64,000 bases of DNA, taken from positions 124,001 to 188,000 of the forward strand of contig NZ_FMBK01000005.1 in NCBI RefSeq assembly GCF_900095025.1. Reading direction: 5' to 3'. The notes beneath the pieces are model-generated. The model was not told where the DNA came from. It saw only the letters and a list, made by a program, of their open reading frames with translations, and did not search any database. Numbering within the stretch: position 1 is the stretch's first letter; each line of letters begins with the position of its first letter. Shown here piece by piece: positions 5,244-53,302 of this stretch. The position numbers and the translations under genes are program-made. The DNA is from Acinetobacter albensis (lineage in GTDB: Bacteria > Pseudomonadota > Gammaproteobacteria > Pseudomonadales > Moraxellaceae).

Positions 5244-7973
5244 ATGCCTTCAAAACTTAGTTTTAAAAAGTCGACTCTTACCCAAAGTGTGAGTTCCATC
5301 ATACAGTGGAATGATGAATATAAACGTTTTTGTTTGAGTCTGTTTGTAATATTGCTTGCCCAACAAAGTTTTGCAGAAGAAGTGTCATCAGATAAGAATG
5401 TATCTCAGGCAGGCTTTGAAGAACAACTTAAGGATGAAGCTGCAAAACAAGGCATGGACAGTCCTGAAAATATTGAGAAAATAGAAAGTTTTCAACAAGA
5501 GCAGACAGGCCCTGATAGTCTATCGATGCTGCAACAACAAGAACAAGCTGTTCAGTCAATAGATGAATTTAAACCAATTGAATTTGAAAACTTAGAAGAA
5601 CTACCAGTTCAACCCGTTAGCCAATCAATGGCTGATGAAATTTTTCGAGTTGCTGAAGATGCCAAAAATCAAGCACAACAATATCGTGCTGGGCAATCTA
5701 CCGAGGTAATCATCTCAGATGTAACACAACAAGAATTGGTCGAAATTAATCAATCGCCAGTCAATGTTGATCAATTGATGAATACTATTGAAGCGGATAG
5801 CCGAATAGTCGTGGAAGCAAATGAATCAGGTAGAACTTTGCCTGAATTAAGCGTTGCAAACGAATTAGAAGAAGAAACAGGATTTTTTAAACGTTGGTTA
5901 AATAAAATAACACCTTCGCGTCCGATGAATGCTGCAAAAGTTCCTCGTATTAGTGCCGATGTGGTGATTGCATCACAGCAAAATGACAGTAATATTGCAA
6001 AAAAAGACTACAATCAAGCATTAGAAAACTTACAAGCCAATATTAAAGGTAAATTATCCAGTTTCACACAAGAATCGTTTAGCGATTTTCCATCAGCCTT
6101 GCCCCAATTACGAACTTTGTCGAATCAAGCAGCACAAGCAGTGGGTTTTTATCAGGCTGAATTTAAGTTTGAAAAATTAAGTGACAGTCGTGTTCGAGTC
6201 AACGTTACTCCGAATTCTCCAGTTCAGATTAAAGCGCAAACTGTTGAGTTTAGTGGCGCTGGTGAAAATCAGCCACAGTTCCAAGTGATTGGTGTTTTGC
6301 CTGATCAAGATGTCGACGATATTTTTAATCACGGTTTGTATGAAGAAACTAAAAATCGCATTAATGAAGCCTCGACCAATAATGGTTTTTTTGATGGATA
6401 TTGGCGTTTACATGATGTGAAAGTCGCACAACCACAAAATACCGCAGAAGTAAATTTACGCTACGAAACGGGCGAGCGTTATAAATTAGGACCTGTCGAA
6501 TTTCGGATGAGTGATCCTTCAAAACCTTTTCCGATTGATATGGATGTTTTGCAAAGTATGGTGTCATGGCAAGATGGCGCAGACTATACTTTTTGGCGTG
6601 TAAATGGTTTAGCCAATAATTTGACTAACTCACGTTATTTTAATTACACCTTAGTGGATGCTGTACGACCTGACCCAATTGAAAAACCCTTAGAGCTTCC
6701 ACCTGATATTCAGGCTTTGGTCGATCAACAGAAAGTGAATGAAAATGAAGTTTTACCTGATGCTAAGCGACAGGTTGTTTCAGCAAAAGAAGTCACACAG
6801 TCTGTGGTAGATGAAGGGCAATTTGCGGGTACTGCAAATAATGAAGCTGATCAAAACATGCGTCATTTGAGTGTTAAGCAAGATACCCAAGAAAGTGAAG
6901 AAGAACGTTTAAAAACCCAAGCACGAGAAGAAAAGAAAATTCCAGTGGTGGTGACTTTAAACGCAGACCGTCTGAACAGTGCTGAAATGGGATTAGGCTA
7001 TGGTACAGATACAGGTGTCCGTTTACGTGGTCAGTATCGTCGGGCGATTGTAAACCGCCGTGGTCATTCTTTTGATGCCAATCTAGAGCTTTCTGAAATT
7101 CGTCAGGCCATTGATGGTCGTTATAATATTCCTTATAAGCATCCACTCAATGACTATATTAGTCTGGTCGGTGGCTATGAACGCGAAGAACGTGAAGACG
7201 TTGCTCAAGGTAACGGATTAATGATTGAATCTGCTGTGGCAGGTGTCGATCGAATTATTAAAAACCCGCGTGGAAGTTGGCAACATACGTTTGGCTTGCG
7301 TTATCGTTTGGATCAGCTTACCCAAGATGGCTTAACAGATTTTGATGAGATTCCAGATGCTTTCTTAGCCAATTCGAACGAAGAGCAGCAATCTTTACTG
7401 TTTGGTTATGAAGTTTCCCGTACCACCAGTGATAAGCGTGTTAACCCGACCAAGGGCTTTAAGCAAACCTATAAAGCAGAAATTGGTAGTGAGACTTTAT
7501 TGTCTGATGCAGATATGGCTATTATCAATGCAGGTTGGCGTTTTATTTATTCATTAGGTGAAACTGATGATCATCAGTTTGTGGGGCGTGGTGATTTAGG
7601 CTATATCTTCACCGAAGATTTTAACAAAGTACCTTATAATTTGCGTTATTTTACCGGTGGTGATCAAACACTACGTGGTTTTGATTACAAAAGTTTATCG
7701 CCAGAACAAAACGGATTCAAAATTGGTGGGCAGGCTTTAGCTGTAGGATCTTTAGAATATAATTACCAGTTTAAAGAAGGTTGGCGTGCAGCTGTATTTA
7801 GTGATGTGGGAAATGCATATGATCAGGATTTCAATACTCCGACTGCTTATAGTTTCGGTTTAGGCGTGCGTTGGGCATCACCGATTGGACCTATTCGGAT
7901 TGATGTCGCGTCGGGTATTTCAGATGATAACCACCCGATACGTATACATTTCTTTATTGGCCCCCAACTATAA
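5244..7973 (+). CDS. tamA: TamA-like Omp85 outer-membrane assembly protein
   Basis: An Omp85-family protein partnering TamB in the translocation and assembly module that inserts some outer-membrane proteins and helps lipid transport. I prefer ATG 5244 (909 residues) to the in-frame ATG 5130 because it leaves one signal peptide (FCLSLFVILLAQQSFAEE) closer to the N-terminus; the 5130 start would give 947. An acidic, glutamine-rich region of about 190 residues precedes the POTRA-like part. The C-terminal barrel carries the lid-lock motif LRGFDYKSL and ends FFIGPQL. tamB starts 22 bp downstream, so they form an operon. Confidence 0.87.
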   Translation: MPSKLSFKKSTLTQSVSSIIQWNDEYKRFCLSLFVILLAQQSFAEEVSSDKNVSQAGFEEQLKDEAAKQGMDSPENIEKIESFQQEQTGPDSLSMLQQQEQAVQSIDEFKPIEFENLEELPVQPVSQSMADEIFRVAEDAKNQAQQYRAGQSTEVIISDVTQQELVEINQSPVNVDQLMNTIEADSRIVVEANESGRTLPELSVANELEEETGFFKRWLNKITPSRPMNAAKVPRISADVVIASQQNDSNIAKKDYNQALENLQANIKGKLSSFTQESFSDFPSALPQLRTLSNQAAQAVGFYQAEFKFEKLSDSRVRVNVTPNSPVQIKAQTVEFSGAGENQPQFQVIGVLPDQDVDDIFNHGLYEETKNRINEASTNNGFFDGYWRLHDVKVAQPQNTAEVNLRYETGERYKLGPVEFRMSDPSKPFPIDMDVLQSMVSWQDGADYTFWRVNGLANNLTNSRYFNYTLVDAVRPDPIEKPLELPPDIQALVDQQKVNENEVLPDAKRQVVSAKEVTQSVVDEGQFAGTANNEADQNMRHLSVKQDTQESEEERLKTQAREEKKIPVVVTLNADRLNSAEMGLGYGTDTGVRLRGQYRRAIVNRRGHSFDANLELSEIRQAIDGRYNIPYKHPLNDYISLVGGYEREEREDVAQGNGLMIESAVAGVDRIIKNPRGSWQHTFGLRYRLDQLTQDGLTDFDEIPDAFLANSNEEQQSLLFGYEVSRTTSDKRVNPTKGFKQTYKAEIGSETLLSDADMAIINAGWRFIYSLGETDDHQFVGRGDLGYIFTEDFNKVPYNLRYFTGGDQTLRGFDYKSLSPEQNGFKIGGQALAVGSLEYNYQFKEGWRAAVFSDVGNAYDQDFNTPTAYSFGLGVRWASPIGPIRIDVASGISDDNHPIRIHFFIGPQL

Positions 7974-13522: not shown

Positions 13523-13831
13523 TATTGACCCTACGAATTAAGTTTATTTTCAGATATTTAATGTGTTTAAAACTAATATAGTACACCTTATTAGAAACTG
13601 TCTAAATTTTTATCAGCATTGAGTTATAGAAGATATGCTTGCATACCAGATATCCAACACTAGCCAAACACGCTGCTGATTCGAAGCGCTTGAGTATAGA
13701 TAGCGTAAAATATGACTAATTGCTGGTGTTTTTTACTTATATATGAATACTTTTAACTAATTAATTTTTTATTAACATAGAAATATGGATTACGCTAGGT
13801 AACCCATTTAGCCTGAGCAATATGATTTAAG
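13523..13831. other. 309-bp intergenic gap
   Basis: AT-rich, with no supported gene. A short region around 13630-13700 has a higher-GC patch with an open minus-strand stretch that could be debris of an old insertion, but I cannot assign it. Confidence 0.4.
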
Positions 13832-15052
13832 TCATTTTTTACTACAGAGATTTGTGACCTTTTCCTTCTCAACTGAATTTATAAAGTCTCCAATTAAGAA
13901 TTCGCTTTGTTTCAAAGAGTCACGATGATCGCCATCCTTGATAGAATGAAATTTAATAGGTTTTTGTGCAGTACAAATTTGTTGATAGTATGCATACGTG
14001 CCTCGTGAATCTACTAAATGGTCTTTTTCACCCTGAACAAGCATCACTGGAACAGTGGGAATCATATTTTCAATAGATTGTTTTTTTAAATAGTGAATCA
14101 AAGGGTTTAGATTTGCATTTGGTTTGAAAACAGACTTGGGAGATTCTTTTAAGTTAGATTGCAATTCAGACAAACAACGACTACGTGCAGTATTAAGAAT
14201 TTTCTCCATGTCTGGACTAATTAAATTTGCAGGCGCAAGGTTTGGGTCTGCTGCTTCAGCACCTAAAAGCACGATCGGGAAGAATGCAGCAACACTTTTG
14301 TCAGGTTCAGGATTATTGACCACGTATTCGGCAATTCCTTGATATTGATAGCCACCAGGTGCGAGTGCTATTGCACCACGTAAATTAAGCTCGGGTGCAT
14401 CTTTTTGTCCATACGCTGCGACAGCAAGAGAGGCAGCGCCTCCTTGACTATGCCCCATGACAAACCAGTTCTTACTTAACTGATTTGGCTTTAAAAGGTG
14501 AATCGCCCTGACAGCATCAACGACAGTATGTAATTGACTCCGAGCATTCATATATGGATGTTCGCCGGGTGTACCTAGACCTTGATAGTCTGGTGCTACT
14601 ACTACATATCCACGAGCAAGCCAAGCATTTAATGCTTTTGCTACGACTTGTTGATAAGCGTGGACAGGTCCATCTACATAATCACCCGAGGGAGCACAAG
14701 TATCCGCAACACCAGTTGTGCCGTGCGCCCAAGCTAAAATTGGCCAACCACCTTTTGGTGCTTTCCCTTTAGGTAATAGGATAAATCCAGAAGCTACAAT
14801 CGGTTCTGATTGTATTCCACGACTCCGATAGGTCATTAAAAATCGTTGTGATGCATTTGAAAATAAATCTGTTGGTTGTGGTTGTAGGGATAATAAAGTT
14901 CCTGGATTTGTAAGTAATACAGTTGGTATTTGAGCTGTGCTGGGAGAAGAAATTGATGGAGATGCAATTACGGATGCAGAACTTATGCTTAAACAGCCTA
15001 ATAATATTTTAAGAACATGATTTTTTATTTTATTCAAGTGAATGTACTCCAT
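13832..15052 (-). CDS. secreted alpha/beta-hydrolase, secretory-lipase (LIP) type
   Basis: A 406-residue serine hydrolase with an N-terminal signal peptide (hydrophobic ILLGCLSISSASVIA, then SPS). The oxyanion region is LAWAHGTTGVADTCAPS, the nucleophile elbow GHSQGGAA, the acid KDHLVDSRG and the histidine DGDHRDS, giving a complete Ser-Asp-His triad. The pattern matches secretory lipases/esterases acting on triacylglycerols or esters outside the cytoplasm. Exact substrate is unknown. It is monocistronic. Confidence 0.82.
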   Translation of the reverse strand: MEYIHLNKIKNHVLKILLGCLSISSASVIASPSISSPSTAQIPTVLLTNPGTLLSLQPQPTDLFSNASQRFLMTYRSRGIQSEPIVASGFILLPKGKAPKGGWPILAWAHGTTGVADTCAPSGDYVDGPVHAYQQVVAKALNAWLARGYVVVAPDYQGLGTPGEHPYMNARSQLHTVVDAVRAIHLLKPNQLSKNWFVMGHSQGGAASLAVAAYGQKDAPELNLRGAIALAPGGYQYQGIAEYVVNNPEPDKSVAAFFPIVLLGAEAADPNLAPANLISPDMEKILNTARSRCLSELQSNLKESPKSVFKPNANLNPLIHYLKKQSIENMIPTVPVMLVQGEKDHLVDSRGTYAYYQQICTAQKPIKFHSIKDGDHRDSLKQSEFLIGDFINSVEKEKVTNLCSKK

Positions 15053-15480
15053 TCTTTATCAATCTTATTCTAAATATATCAGCATTTTTACTTATATCTG
15101 ATCATAATTTATTTTAAAATTTTTTAATATTTCTATTGGTTTAAAGTGGCTTCCAATTCTTAGATTTATTCTAGGTTATGCTGTTTAATCATCTAATGAA
15201 TACAGGAAATTATTCTTATTTAATAATGATGTCATGTTTATATAAAGAATATTTGATGTATATCTAAAATATTGAAAATGATCCAAAATTTTTGGTCAAT
15301 AATCCCATTTATAATTAAATTTAAAAAATTATTTTTTATATTATAAGAAACTATACCAATTCAGAGGAATTGTATTGTCCAATATTATTTTGTCTAAACA
15401 AATTGTAGGTAATTCTAAAAAACAGGAAGTAAAAGAAGGTCAGGGTAAAATTTTAATTATTATGGATAAAATAAATACAA
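15053..15480. other. intergenic gap
   Basis: Very AT-rich. It holds the lipase promoter side and nothing I can name. A TTG-initiated 44-codon frame from 15375 runs into the csp terminator and is treated as chance. Confidence 0.45.
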
Positions 15481-50321: not shown

Positions 50322-50350
50322 ATTGCGTATAATGTCGCATTATGTTATTT
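50322..50350 (+). other. dif-like XerC/XerD site 1 (direct)
   Basis: XerC half ATTGCGTATAA, 7-bp centre TGTCGCA, XerD half TTATGTTATTT. It shares a 26-bp identical segment (50310-50335) with the site at 51792, including 12 bp of outside flank. Confidence 0.75.
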
Positions 50351-50365
50351 GCCCTAGTCGTTGAT

Positions 50366-50394
50366 AAAAAAGCCCAGTTTATACTGGGTTTTTT
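50366..50394. terminator. hairpin inside the paired dif sites
   Basis: Stem AAAAAGCCCAG / CTGGGTTTTTT (G-T in the middle), loop TTTATA; can act as terminator and as the inner part of the folded single strand. Confidence 0.75.
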
Positions 50395-50430
50395 GTCAAT
50401 GATGCGACCATTTTCAACGCACGAGCAGGG

Positions 50431-50459
50431 CATTTAACATCAATGTCGATTATACGAAA
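50431..50459 (-). other. dif-like site, inverted (inner partner of site 1)
   Basis: On the minus strand: XerC half ATTTCGTATAA, 7-bp centre, then TGATGTTAAAT. Opposite orientation to 50322, 80 bp apart. Confidence 0.65.
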
Positions 50460-50460
50460 T

Positions 50461-50696: not shown

Positions 50697-50900
50697 TTAT
50701 TTTTTTGTTTCTACTTTTACTATTCCATCTCGATTAACTTCAATTATTCCATCTAGTAAAGTTTGTTTAATAATTTCATGGAATATTTCTGTATCTCTTA
50801 ATGGTTTTTTACCTGCTTTTACTAAGTCTCTATTCAATTTCAAAGCCACTTCATTTAGGGCTTGCTCTTCTTCATCAGTAAATCGAAATGTCTTAGCCAT
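50697..50900 (-). CDS. ribbon-helix-helix type regulator of element 1
   Basis: 67 residues: MAKTFRFTDEEEQALNEVAL, then KAGKKPLRDTEIFHEIIKQT. Length and the 'xxxFRxxDEEE' N-terminal strand resemble Arc/CopG-like DNA-binding proteins. It shares 'DEEE-x-x-L-x-E-x-x-L' and a late 'H-x-x-I' with the protein at 52695 in element 2. Divergent from the rep fragment, it is probably the element's repressor. AAATCAC / GTGATTT at 50916-50947 is a candidate operator. Confidence 0.6.
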   Translation of the reverse strand: MAKTFRFTDEEEQALNEVALKLNRDLVKAGKKPLRDTEIFHEIIKQTLLDGIIEVNRDGIVKVETKK

Positions 50901-50988: not shown

Positions 50989-51453
50989 TTGAACAGCCAG
51001 AATTATTGCTACATCAGTAAAGTCACTCGCTGCCTCTGGCACGTAGCTTTTGACCCAATCTTAGAGGCAATGAAGGGTAAATATATGAATTTTTCATCAG
51101 ATGGAGAAATCTTAGATTTACTCAAATCTAAGTTAGTCACTTATACCAAGACAAATAAACCAAGCTATACCAAAGCAAATAATGCTTTTAAATTCTATTC
51201 CTTGATGCGCCAAGTTGGCTTTCAAGCAACTAAAAAGTTGTACAGCGAACCCCAGTTTTATAAATGTCTAAATGCTCTTTTAGACTGTGAAATTAGCAAA
51301 TCACACCTACAAAATCTCAATAAAAATCCGAACGGTAAAGTAATCCCATTTGTTCGAATGTTCGAACTCAAAATGTGCGATCAGATGCCATCTGACTATC
51401 AAATTCCAGTTTCACAATACAGTCCAAAATCGGGCTTATATCTAGTGGCTTAA
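50989..51453 (+). CDS. inovirus replication initiation protein (II/X family), C-terminal fragment
   Basis: 154 residues, starting TTG (frame closed at 50974). It aligns in pattern with the C-terminal domain of filamentous-phage gene II/X replication proteins: DPILEAMKGKYMNF, YTKANNAFKFYSLMRQVGFQ, QFYKCLNALLDCEISKSHLQ and IPFVRMFELKM. Full-length proteins are roughly 350-400 residues with an N-terminal nicking domain, absent here. The gene is thus truncated at the 5' side, unless the N-terminal part is not needed. Confidence 0.68.
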   Translation: MNSQNYCYISKVTRCLWHVAFDPILEAMKGKYMNFSSDGEILDLLKSKLVTYTKTNKPSYTKANNAFKFYSLMRQVGFQATKKLYSEPQFYKCLNALLDCEISKSHLQNLNKNPNGKVIPFVRMFELKMCDQMPSDYQIPVSQYSPKSGLYLVA

Positions 51454-51487: not shown

Positions 51488-51784
51488 ATGCAAGTTCAAT
51501 TTAATACTCGTACCATTTTACCGTCTGTTTACCGTTCAGAGAAAGACGGGGTCGAAAAGGTCTATTTGTCTACAACCGTGTTTTCACCGCAACGCTACAA
51601 CTTAACGCCAGCAGCTGGAGTTATGCCAGTCGAACAGATTCAAGCTGTATTAGCAGAATGCGCAGACAACGCACAGGAAGTAGAAATTCAATTTGTAGAG
51701 TCACAAACCAAGTTTGGCGCACAGATGCAGATATTTAGTGTTAAGCCATTACCTAAGAAAAACCCAACTGATTCAAAGCCTTAA
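51488..51784 (+). CDS. small protein in the place of inovirus ssDNA-binding protein
   Basis: 98 residues: MQVQFNTRTILPSVYRSEKD, VYLSTTVFSPQRYNL and VEIQFVESQTKFGAQMQIFS. A compact beta-rich protein following rep by 34 bp with AATGAGGTT before the ATG. Position, size and strand pattern match the gene V-type ssDNA-binding proteins of filamentous phages; similarity itself is a judgement. It ends 7 bp before the next dif site. Confidence 0.6.
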   Translation: MQVQFNTRTILPSVYRSEKDGVEKVYLSTTVFSPQRYNLTPAAGVMPVEQIQAVLAECADNAQEVEIQFVESQTKFGAQMQIFSVKPLPKKNPTDSKP

Positions 51785-51791
51785 TTATACC

Positions 51792-51819
51792 ATTGCGTAT
51801 AATGTATATTATGTTAAAT
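51792..51819 (+). other. dif site 2 (direct, canonical 6-bp centre)
   Basis: XerC half ATTGCGTATAA, centre TGTATA, XerD half TTATGTTAAAT. This is the gamma-proteobacterial dif pattern, and the best candidate for the chromosome's own dif. Confidence 0.82.
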
Positions 51820-51913
51820 AGAATATCAAAGACTGTAGCCTACACAACCTAAGTTGTTGCCATAGCTCGGCATCGTAAATCTTTAAAATTGTATTCACGA
51901 TGCCGAGTATTCT

Positions 51914-51941
51914 AAATAACATAATATACGTTATGCCGAAA
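51914..51941 (-). other. dif-like site, inverted
   Basis: Minus strand: TTTCGGCATAA, centre CGTATA, TTATGTTATTT. The stop codon of the gene at 51931 lies in its XerC half. Confidence 0.68.
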
Positions 51942-52143
51942 TCTGACGCGCTATGTGGTGATCTAACCGAATAAACAATATTTTTAACTTTGTGATTTCT
52001 TCATCATGATCTAAATCTGATTCTTGCATTTGCACAAGCACGCTCTCCAGTAGATCACGCATATAGATAAAATCATCTCTGGTTAAAACGCCTTTCTTTC
52101 TGTCATAGCTTACAGATTTATACAGATGTCTATTTTGAATCAT
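51931..52143 (-). CDS. hypothetical protein of element 2, gene 4
   Basis: 70 residues from ATG 52143 (IQNRHLYKSVSYDRKKGVLT). An alpha-helical charged protein with DFIYMRDLLESVLVQMQESD and FIRLDHHIARQ. It starts inside the preceding gene and ends in the dif-like site. Function unknown. Confidence 0.55.
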   Translation of the reverse strand: MIQNRHLYKSVSYDRKKGVLTRDDFIYMRDLLESVLVQMQESDLDHDEEITKLKILFIRLDHHIARQISA

Positions 52144-52273
52144 CAATCTTTACCGGCATCTTATTAATGGGGGTATTTAATTCCAACCCCCACTGTAAAC
52201 TCGGTGTTTTTGACTTTTCGAAAGTCTCACCGAAGAAAGATTCATTGAGCGACCAAACTGGATTCTTTTTCAT
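52130..52273 (-). CDS. hypothetical protein of element 2, gene 3
   Basis: 47 residues: MKKNPVWSLNESFFGETFEK, SKTPSLQWGLELN and NKMPVKIDDSK. It begins 2 bp after the previous stop and overlaps the next start. A short hydrophilic protein with conserved-looking Trp residues. Not named in any family I know. Confidence 0.5.
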   Translation of the reverse strand: MKKNPVWSLNESFFGETFEKSKTPSLQWGLELNTPINKMPVKIDDSK

Positions 52274-52275
52274 GA

Positions 52276-52374
52276 TCAAAGCACCCCAACTAAATCAAGA
52301 AAAAAGGCAGCTGCAATAAAAGCCATTGCAAAAGAGCAAATCGCAAAATATATGTTGAAGCGATCCAATTTCAT
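52276..52374 (-). CDS. tiny membrane protein of element 2, gene 2
   Basis: 32 residues, MKLDRFNIYFAICSFAMAFI AAAFFLDLVGVL: one transmembrane helix. Its ATG overlaps the stop of gene 1 by ATGA, indicating translational coupling. Similar in size and topology to small hydrophobic inovirus proteins, but no homology is claimed. Confidence 0.52.
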   Translation of the reverse strand: MKLDRFNIYFAICSFAMAFIAAAFFLDLVGVL

Positions 52375-52592
52375 TCATCTATCCCTAAATCACGCATGTG
52401 ATCATTTTCTTGTTTTACAGCATCGCAATATTCAGAAACTAAAGCGGACTTATAGCCCCACTCGTTCATACACATTTCAATATGGAAAAGAACCTTTTCA
52501 GATTCAAAAGCAGGATTGCCCCCAACGATCAATTGACACGCCTTGTCAAAGATGATTTTGGAAACGATTTCGAAAGCTAGTTCTTTTTCCAT
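52371..52592 (-). CDS. hypothetical protein of element 2, gene 1
   Basis: 73 residues: MEKELAFEIVSKIIFDKACQ, GGNPAFESEKVLFHIEMCMN and LVSEYCDAVKQENDHM. Soluble and helical, with three cysteines. First in a four-gene overlapping cluster transcribed away from the ribbon-helix-helix gene. The shared region 52593-52694 holds imperfect palindromes. Confidence 0.55.
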   Translation of the reverse strand: MEKELAFEIVSKIIFDKACQLIVGGNPAFESEKVLFHIEMCMNEWGYKSALVSEYCDAVKQENDHMRDLGIDE

Positions 52593-52694: not shown

Positions 52695-52886
52695 ATGTCC
52701 ACTACAGTTAGACTTAGAGATGAAGAGGAAGAAATGCTTCAAGAATTGACTTTAAATATGATGATTGAAACCAAACTTAGGATTAAAGAATCAGATGTAC
52801 TTCATACACTTATAAGAAAACACCTTAAAGATATAAAAACATCTGATGTAATGAAATACAGAGAAGAAGTTCTTAAAAAAGATTAA
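52695..52886 (+). CDS. ribbon-helix-helix type regulator of element 2
   Basis: 63 residues: MSTTVRLRDEEEEMLQELTL then ESDVLHTLIRKHLKDIK. The N-terminal strand (TTVRLRD) and helices fit CopG/Arc-like regulators, and it is a distant relative of the element 1 protein. Divergent from the tiny-gene cluster, so the likely repressor. Strong terminator downstream. Confidence 0.62.
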   Translation: MSTTVRLRDEEEEMLQELTLNMMIETKLRIKESDVLHTLIRKHLKDIKTSDVMKYREEVLKKD

Positions 52887-52942: not shown

Positions 52943-52956
52943 CTCTTTTGCGCTTG

Positions 52957-52985
52957 ATGTCGCATAACGTAATTTTATGTTAAAT
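52957..52985 (+). other. dif-like site 3 (direct)
   Basis: XerC half ATGTCGCATAA, 7-bp centre CGTAATT, XerD half TTATGTTAAAT. Confidence 0.75.
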
Positions 52986-53018: not shown

Positions 53019-53302
53019 ATGCTTACGTTTTTAGAAATTCAAGCTAAGGTTGATCAAATTTGTGAAAAATTGAGTTGGAAAAAAGAAGAGTTTGGCCCGA
53101 AGTTCAGAATGGTGGAGCTCCATATGTATTAATCCATGAAAACAAATATTTGTATATTTCTGAAGAACGAGGAGGAGTTATTTTTGAAAAAACAACCAAG
53201 GATTTTGAAGAGTTACTTTATTGGAGAATGGATAATTTTATATCTAGCTATTCATATGAGTTTGAACTTAAAAAGGCTTTGTTGGACAAACTTACCCTTT
53301 AA
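53019..53302 (+). pseudogene. Imm63-like immunity protein, frameshifted
   Basis: ATG 53019 opens LTFLEIQAKVDQICEKLSWK and stops at 53133. A one-base shift near 53085-53100 enters a frame with NGGAPYVLIHENKYLYISEE and then FEELLYWRMDNFISSYSYEF, ending at 53302. 'PYV-I...Y-ERG...T-D-DELLYW' is the Imm63 pattern. Either a broken immunity gene or a sequencing error. No toxin gene is adjacent. Confidence 0.62.

What the first reader, a model, noticed from the sequence alone, without database searches (positions are those of the whole stretch)
51792..51941. CTX-phi attP-like inverted dif pair
Two dif-like sites face each other 95 bp apart with an 11-bp perfect inner stem. Folded as single-stranded DNA they would rebuild a paired XerC/XerD site, the arrangement known for CTX-phi attP(+) in Vibrio cholerae. 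I know of no described Acinetobacter version.
Basis: partly seen in the sequence, partly recalled or inferred. Interest (0 to 1): 0.85.

Follow-up and report, generated by a model that had tools for sequence, protein, structure and literature searches.

The report
Folded XerD-side phage attachment site
Next to the spot where this Acinetobacter's chromosome copies are separated sits the end of a decayed filamentous phage whose attachment sequence can fold on itself like the cholera-toxin phage's, but whose joints suggest it was inserted from the opposite side by the partner enzyme XerD.

Summary
The inverted pair is real: 51792-51819 and 51914-51942, 94 bp apart, z about -7 on either strand. 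The reading changes. Site 1 is the one dif with central region TGTATA found in this genome and lies where GC skew flips. Site 2 is the inner arm of the attachment site of a filamentous-phage family ("B"); the window holds a 1.2-kb B remnant ending in a second junction at 52956-52985. In relatives the sequence from the D arm to site 2 folds, with the phage's own right end, into a ~150-nt three-way structure (18 sites: 97.6% of cells paired, 15 pairs with two-sided changes). It lies between the zot end and the regulator end, as CTX attP does. Junctions mirror CTX: 36 of 36 left junctions with a non-B C arm keep the dif central region (two with one base changed), and 20 of 20 B arms carry the phage's own, so exchange was at the central-region/D-arm border, XerD's cut. 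The neighbouring family "A" (second hairpin, 50322-50460) shows the XerC/CTX pattern on the other side of dif. A folded, XerD-only site fits none of the three classes in the papers seen. Junctions and covariation are shown; XerD as catalyst and ssDNA as substrate are inferred.

The parts
51792..51819 (+). Chromosomal dif: C arm 51792-51802, central region TGTATA 51803-51808, D arm 51809-51819; also left junction of the B remnant and right junction of the A remnant
   Evidence: only one of three dif-like pattern matches in the genome with TGTATA; GC skew flip; coordinates
51820..51913 (.). Inner part of the B attachment site: short hairpin a (from about 51832) and hairpin b (51866-51876 / 51897-51907)
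   Evidence: folds; covariation in relatives; hairpin a is not in the window's own minimum-energy fold
51914..51942 (-). Inverted dif-like site 2 (D2 arm, central region CGTATA read on -, C2 arm), inner arm of the B attP
   Evidence: found in relatives
51931..52146 (-). ORF, 71 aa, phrog_13740 (an ORF of this kind lies after zot in B phages L039 and L043)
   Evidence: phrog E 2e-13; alignment, 22-29% identity to the first row
52371..52592 (-). ORF, 73 aa, phrog_20873; resembles by eye the 82-103-aa ORF next to rep in L039, L062 and L219
   Evidence: ORFs
52695..52886 (+). ORF, 63 aa, phrog_5219 (unknown function), in the position of the phage regulator
   Evidence: role inferred from position
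52956..52985 (+). Right junction of the B remnant: phage arm GATGTCGCATAA, widened spacer CGTAATT, D arm TTATGTTAAAT
50322..50460 (+). Second inverted pair: family A attP hairpin with 7-nt spacers (CTX pattern)
   Evidence: (-34.3 kcal/mol), coordinates
50697..50900 (-). Family A regulator-like ORF, phrog_5642 (unknown function)
   Evidence: role inferred from position
50989..51453 (+). Truncated replication protein, C-terminal part only
   Evidence: PF05155 E 1e-10; phrog_702 matched from position 239 of 382
51488..51784 (+). Family A orf6, 98 aa, phrog_19820, in the place that RstB holds in CTX phage (recalled); its end abuts the dif C arm
   Evidence: relatives

Best explanation
The pair is the left end of a decayed filamentous prophage or satellite of a family (here called B) that inserts on the D-arm side of the Acinetobacter dif. 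In the free phage the attP is C_R - 7-8 nt spacer - D1 - two hairpins - D2' - cr2' - C2'. The (+) single strand folds it into a dif-like duplex with a small bulge next to the XerD cut. XerC and XerD of the host bind it together with dif. XerD alone swaps one pair of strands at the border of central region and D arm; XerC cannot act because the bases on its side do not match dif; replication finishes the job. The result is host C arm - TGTATA (a working dif is kept) - phage - C_R - phage spacer - D arm. Shown from sequence: the anatomy, the exchange point, and the matching of the two ends of each phage unit. Inferred: XerD as catalyst, the folded single strand as substrate, completion by replication.
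For: (1) Junctions: after removing the duplicate records I recognised, 56 B hairpins have a readable upstream site; 36 have a non-B C arm and all keep the dif central region (34 TGTATA, 1 TAGATA, 1 TATATA); 20 have the B arm and all carry a phage spacer. L062 (7.5 kb, with Zot and a replication protein) and L078 (shorter) are inserts between dif and the chromosomal flank that directly follows dif in L044 and L047 and, with small differences, L038. (2) Two-end matching: in 21 of 22 non-redundant units with both ends the phage spacer on the right matches the inverted site on the left (CTT/AAG, CGTA/TACG, CGAA/TTCG); score 74, shuffled mean 45.4, maximum 66 in 20,000. In mixed tandem arrays (L212, L031) the match follows the phage unit, not the junction. 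(3) Fold: 18 joined attP sites, 97.6% of cells paired, 15 pairs with two-sided changes against 6.4 in shuffles, 0 of 500. (4) The site lies between the zot end and the regulator end; Das 2014 places CTX attP between ctxB and rstR. (5) The genome has a XerD gene (over the family cut-off) and a XerC-like gene (320.7 bits, below the cut-off of 335.15).
Against: No experiment. Double-stranded XerD-first exchange followed by replication would leave the same junctions. In the C stem only two pairs covary, through three sequence classes, so few independent events. One unit (L215) breaks the match. In the 7-nt spacers the base next to the XerD cut differs from dif on one of the two exchanged strands. 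Seven relic hairpins abut a different conserved flank instead of dif. The window copy is degenerate.
Confidence: 0.68

Rival explanations
1. The B attP is used as double-stranded DNA: XerD swaps one strand pair on the phage circle (TLC-like start, replication finish), and the palindrome serves another phage step such as complementary-strand origin or packaging signal.
For: Would give exactly the observed junctions. Filamentous phages need hairpins for other functions (recalled).
Against: Does not explain why the central-region bases next to the two XerC arms match within each phage unit, nor why the inverted arm keeps Xer arms of dif sequence. In the 7-nt spacers the dif strand would meet a mismatched first base in the duplex form but a matched one in the folded form (my reading of the sequences).
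Confidence: 0.22
2. CTX-type: the folded (+) strand is joined by XerC.
For: Arrangement, spacing, fold and gene position match CTX attP(+) as described in PMC4246890.
Against: The exchange point is on the other side of the central region: 36 of 36 left junctions with a non-B arm keep the dif central region and 20 of 20 B arms carry the phage spacer. The neighbouring A phages show the CTX pattern (L012: host arm + phage spacer on the left, phage arm + TGTATA on the right).
Confidence: 0.05
3. A chance or non-Xer inverted repeat at dif (terminator or cruciform) without a role in integration.
For: Hairpin b is a strong stem; genes converge on it in the circular order.
Against: Dif-like arms at both ends, conservation across phages, covariation, no T-run seen after hairpin b, and the element boundaries fall exactly at the arms.
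Confidence: 0.05

Closest known systems
CTX phage attP(+) class of IMEX (CTX, RS1, Ypf phage; PMC4246890, passages seen)
   Same: Two inverted dif-like sites about 90 bp apart, about 150 nt, fold to a bulged dif-like duplex, placed between the late genes and the repressor, arrays and small satellites at dif
   Different: Exchange at the central-region/D-arm border instead of C-arm/central-region border; phage lies on the D side of dif; a canonical dif is kept on the left; inner part is a three-way junction with two hairpins
TLC phage class (XerD first, then XerC, dsDNA; PMC4246890 and PMC5357621, passages seen)
   Same: XerD-side exchange, satellite-like elements, working dif kept
   Different: TLC attP is one 28-bp site with C arm and central region like dif and a divergent D arm; here the D arm is perfect, the central region differs, the site can fold, and there is no sign of XerC exchange
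VGJ phage class (XerC, dsDNA, 29-bp site; same passages)
   Same: One-recombinase exchange completed by replication, because only one side of the central region matches dif
   Different: Mirror side; two inverted sites instead of one
pdif hairpin model for Acinetobacter plasmid modules (PMC7399989, passages seen)
   Same: Inverted XerC/D sites proposed to fold into a Xer site in Acinetobacter
   Different: A plasmid resistance module with binding tests of hairpin oligonucleotides; no phage and no XerD-side junctions in the passages seen
Acinetobacter filamentous phages Af and M02 (PMC11209303 passages; OQ693633 record)
   Same: Same phage world; the authors suspect host machinery, as for CTX and Ypf at dif, for those flanked by replication genes
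   Different: The word attP does not occur in the main text of PMC11209303; no folded site or XerD side in the passages seen

Membership tests
[quoted passage not shown]
[quoted passage not shown]
   XerD gene and XerC-like gene present, activity untested
CTX class | Two inverted dif-like sites about 90 bp apart folding into about 150 nt | tested here: met
CTX class | Exchange next to the XerC arm only (phage central region on the left) | tested here: not met
   0 of 36 non-B left junctions carry a phage spacer
CTX class | (+)ssDNA is the substrate | not testable with these tools
   covariation is indirect support
TLC class | Exchange at the XerD side | tested here: met
   position of the exchange only; the enzyme was not tested
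TLC class | Single 28-bp attP with dif-like C arm and central region and divergent D arm | tested here: not met
   D arm TTATGTTAAAT identical, central region CTTCATT, CGTAATT and others, inverted partner present
TLC class | XerC completes the exchange | tested here: inconclusive
   no junction shows a moved central region, as expected if XerC never exchanges, but heteroduplex fate cannot be seen
VGJ class | Single site, XerC exchange | tested here: not met
Inoviridae | Zot-type assembly ATPase and phage replication initiator in the element | tested here: met
   Pfam hits for L039 Zot and Rep_trans (right end not in that contig; L062 holds ORFs of the same length and near-identical sequence between both ends) and for the G2P-type protein of L238; absent from the 1.2-kb window remnant

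The most novel reading that the evidence does not exclude
A fourth class of Xer-exploiting phage: a folded single-strand attachment site that is joined by XerD alone at the D side of dif, mirror image of CTX phage, so that XerC-type (A) and XerD-type (B) filamentous phages dock on opposite sides of one dif and leave it intact between them.
Probability: 0.55. Interest if true: 0.76.

Novelty: new variant of a known kind. Interest (0 to 1): 0.64.

Why it matters
In the passages seen (PMC4246890, PMC5357621, PMC9765430) XerD is switched on by FtsK or, for TLC phage, works without FtsK with the help of a phage-coded factor, and folded attachment sites are described only with XerC. A folded, XerD-only site would show another way to use XerD, explain how phage arrays grow on both sides of dif without destroying it, and give a simple substrate to test what sets the order of strand exchange.

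Tried and rejected
CTX-type XerC exchange for this element was rejected on the junctions. 'Chromosomal flank of dif' for the hairpin was considered because several species carry it close to the VF530 gene (L010, L015, L219); rejected because phages carry it inside their boundaries (L062, L238) and several dif sites without it show another flank (L012, L014, L020, L038, L044, L047). 'Phage in inverted orientation by accident' was replaced by the XerD-side reading, which explains the orientation. The variable-gap scan of viral contigs hit 53 stretches that I did not follow. Phage and plasmid searches with orf6 and Zot gave leads only.

Rows dropped before the counts: of 98 hits to the C2 pattern (duplicates L017, L063, L067, L074, L099, L233 removed first), 42 had no readable upstream site: 23 are viral contigs without the hairpin, 19 are truncated, decayed or relic copies; among these L235 (second hit) has a one-base variant of the B arm with the spacer CTTCATT. 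One search lists 60 sites because it still held four duplicate rows. Of 23 units with both ends (25 rows less two of L099), three gave no composite (L104 cut by the contig end, L208 first unit with another flank, L240 with a deletion) and two of L219 were identical, leaving 19; L238 was left out of the covariation count because its inner hairpins are longer. One second hit of G080 (contig C237) was not fetched.

Full report
What is there. The window is part of a genome of 3.05 Mb in 30 contigs; it is Acinetobacter by its nearest named relatives. The flagged pair is at 51792-51819 and 51914-51942 and folds well on either strand. An exact dif-like pattern matches three times in the genome and only here with TGTATA; the place marks the change from mostly positive to negative GC skew. 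I take site 1 to be the chromosomal dif.

Left of dif. A truncated phage replication protein (50989-51453), orf6 (51488-51784) and a small minus-strand ORF in regulator position (50697-50900) belong to a filamentous phage family called A here. orf6 was found in 7 genome loci and 45 viral contigs. Family A has its own inverted pair with widened spacers (7-13 nt on the first side): one search lists 38 distinct hairpins, of which three (two from L060, one from L031) are B forms and one (L046 minus strand) looks like chance. The window copy is 50322-50460. L012 shows the boundaries: host arm plus phage spacer on the left (5842), an internal copy (12704), a second copy of the replication gene and orf6 (13625-15144), and phage arm plus TGTATA plus host flank on the right (15168). 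This is the XerC pattern of CTX phage.

Right of dif. The sequence from the D arm through site 2 continues into three small ORFs with phage-family matches (none in Pfam) and ends in GATGTCGCATAA-CGTAATT-TTATGTTAAAT at 52956-52985. In relatives the same kind of left end is followed, on the minus strand, by phage genes: in L039 a 13740-type ORF, a small ORF, Zot, coat-like ORFs (by position) and a Rep_trans replication protein (right end not in that contig); in L062 the Zot, replication and neighbouring ORFs between both ends, 7.5 kb; in L238 a 163-aa ORF, Zot, coat-like ORFs and a G2P-type replication protein between both ends, with three extra ORFs near the right end. Call this family B. L062 and the shorter L078 are followed by the chromosomal flank that directly follows dif in L044 and L047 and, with small differences, L038.

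Survey. A site-2 pattern with 17 fixed bases occurs in 39 of 175 genomes of the genus, a lower bound because only exact matches count. I fetched regions from 37 of the other 38 (all but G070, whose hits lie at contig ends) plus G056 and pooled them with the viral-contig and named-genome loci. After removing the duplicates I recognised, 98 pattern hits include 56 with a readable upstream site. Of these, 36 have a C arm that is not B's and keep the dif central region (34 exact, L213 TAGATA, L232 TATATA); 20 have B's arm (GAAG, AATG, GATG or GAAA before TCGCATAA) and carry a phage spacer. None is the other way round. No two of the 56 hairpins are identical. If XerC alone acted the phage spacer should stand behind host arms, and if both strands were swapped it should do so in about half of the cases.

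Two ends match. For 25 units with both ends (two of them the L099 duplicate of L212) the bases of the right-end spacer next to the XerC arm were compared with the inverted site at the left end: CTT goes with AAG, CGTA with TACG, CGAA with TTCG. 21 of 22 non-redundant units match (exception L215); score 74, shuffled mean 45.4, maximum 66 in 20,000 shuffles. In mixed arrays (L212, L031) the junction between two phages is mismatched while each unit matches itself. So the pairing appears to be kept in the free circle.

The fold. Joining the two ends of each unit gives 19 distinct sites. Their minimum-energy folds share a C stem, a small internal loop, a D stem, a 7-bp stem and hairpin b; hairpin a is missing from the folds of the window and of the second L212 unit, the C stem is shortened in L215, and L238 has longer inner arms. 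On 18 of them (without L238) 97.6% of cells pair (shuffled 91.1%), 15 pairs have two-sided changes (6.4), covariation 0.203 (0.084); 0 of 500 shuffles reach any of these, and slid structures fall to 28-44% paired. Most pairs with two-sided changes are in hairpin b (9) and hairpin a (4); two are in the C stem. The D-arm part barely varies and says nothing. The structure was read from these folds, so the slid control leans in its favour, and relatedness of the sequences is not removed by the shuffles.

Mechanism. The (+) strand of B (sense of zot and rep) is the window's minus strand. Folded, its 3' arm D1'-cr1'-C_R' is the strand XerD would cut; joining there gives exactly the observed junctions. 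The opposite arm mostly ends in ATA before the D arm, like dif, so the incoming dif strand finds a match; bases on the XerC side do not match dif. Das 2014 states that ligation needs such base pairing. For the 7-nt spacers one of the two joins has a first-base mismatch, which is a weakness of the model. A double-stranded XerD reaction would leave the same junctions; the matching ends and the covariation are what favour the fold.

Known or new. The passages seen in PMC4246890 and PMC5357621 describe three classes (CTX ssDNA XerC; VGJ dsDNA XerC; TLC dsDNA XerD then XerC), and PMC7399989 counts three classes. Searches of the held library for Acinetobacter filamentous phages with dif and XerC, for TLC phage with XerD, dif and attP, for XerD with single-stranded filamentous phage hairpins, for inovirus with Acinetobacter and dif site, and for IMEX listed no paper whose title or abstract opening describes a folded XerD-side site; I looked into passages of six papers. 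Most subscription papers are not in that library. I therefore file it as a new variant within IMEX, not as a CTX or TLC member.

State of the window copy. The B element here is 1.2 kb, lacks rep, coat and zot, and is either a remnant or a small satellite; units with 1.1-1.3 kb between the ends occur in arrays in L208, L219 and L230.

Noticed in passing
window 52986 to G000:C14:203433 (L005 about 17434): A segment of 26.4 kb separates the B remnant at dif from a second, 98% identical copy of the hairpin that lies beside a VF530 gene; in L010, L015, L031 and L219 VF530 follows dif within about 0.3-5.6 kb. It may be an island inserted on the D side.
   Followed up: partly
L005:17434, L204:13246, L208:2086, L210:1412, L211:2093, L217:1628, L235:2311 (and L005:18377 without the hairpin): A conserved end of about 30 nt, GAACTAGA-N-TTTAGGTAAACATAAG with variants, abuts the outer half of the D arm (TTAAAT) before the hairpin in otherwise mostly different contexts; it looks like the end of another D-side element.
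   Followed up: partly
G000:C13:19012 and 77891: Two direct dif-like sites with GCGCCA between arms, 59 kb apart; resemble plasmid pdif sites.
   Followed up: no
L219:2834-8150: Two nearly identical 2.0-kb B units in tandem, each with a truncated replication ORF and a YfbU-domain gene, then a third unit with other cargo: RS1-like satellites on the D side.
   Followed up: partly
L009 (OQ693633) 5927-6243: The deposited circular genome of Acinetobacter phage M02 contains a canonical dif followed by sequence like the host's dif flank in L055, and similar stretches near both ends; it may include chromosomal sequence.
   Followed up: no
L012:5842-15190: The family A prophage ends with a second copy of the rep-orf6 module, as if an RS1-like module were integrated beside the full phage; the full phage also has a single dif-like site after orf6.
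   Followed up: partly
L060:3713-5329: The replication gene is split by an inverted segment, either a real inversion or an assembly chimera (ORFs).
   Followed up: no
window 53075-53302: An Imm63-type immunity gene stands just right of the B remnant; no partner toxin was looked for.
   Followed up: no
G000:C30:254-367: A third, 89% identical relic covering only part of site 2 and the 13740 ORF region, next to an ORF that looks like undecaprenyl-diphosphatase by eye.
   Followed up: no
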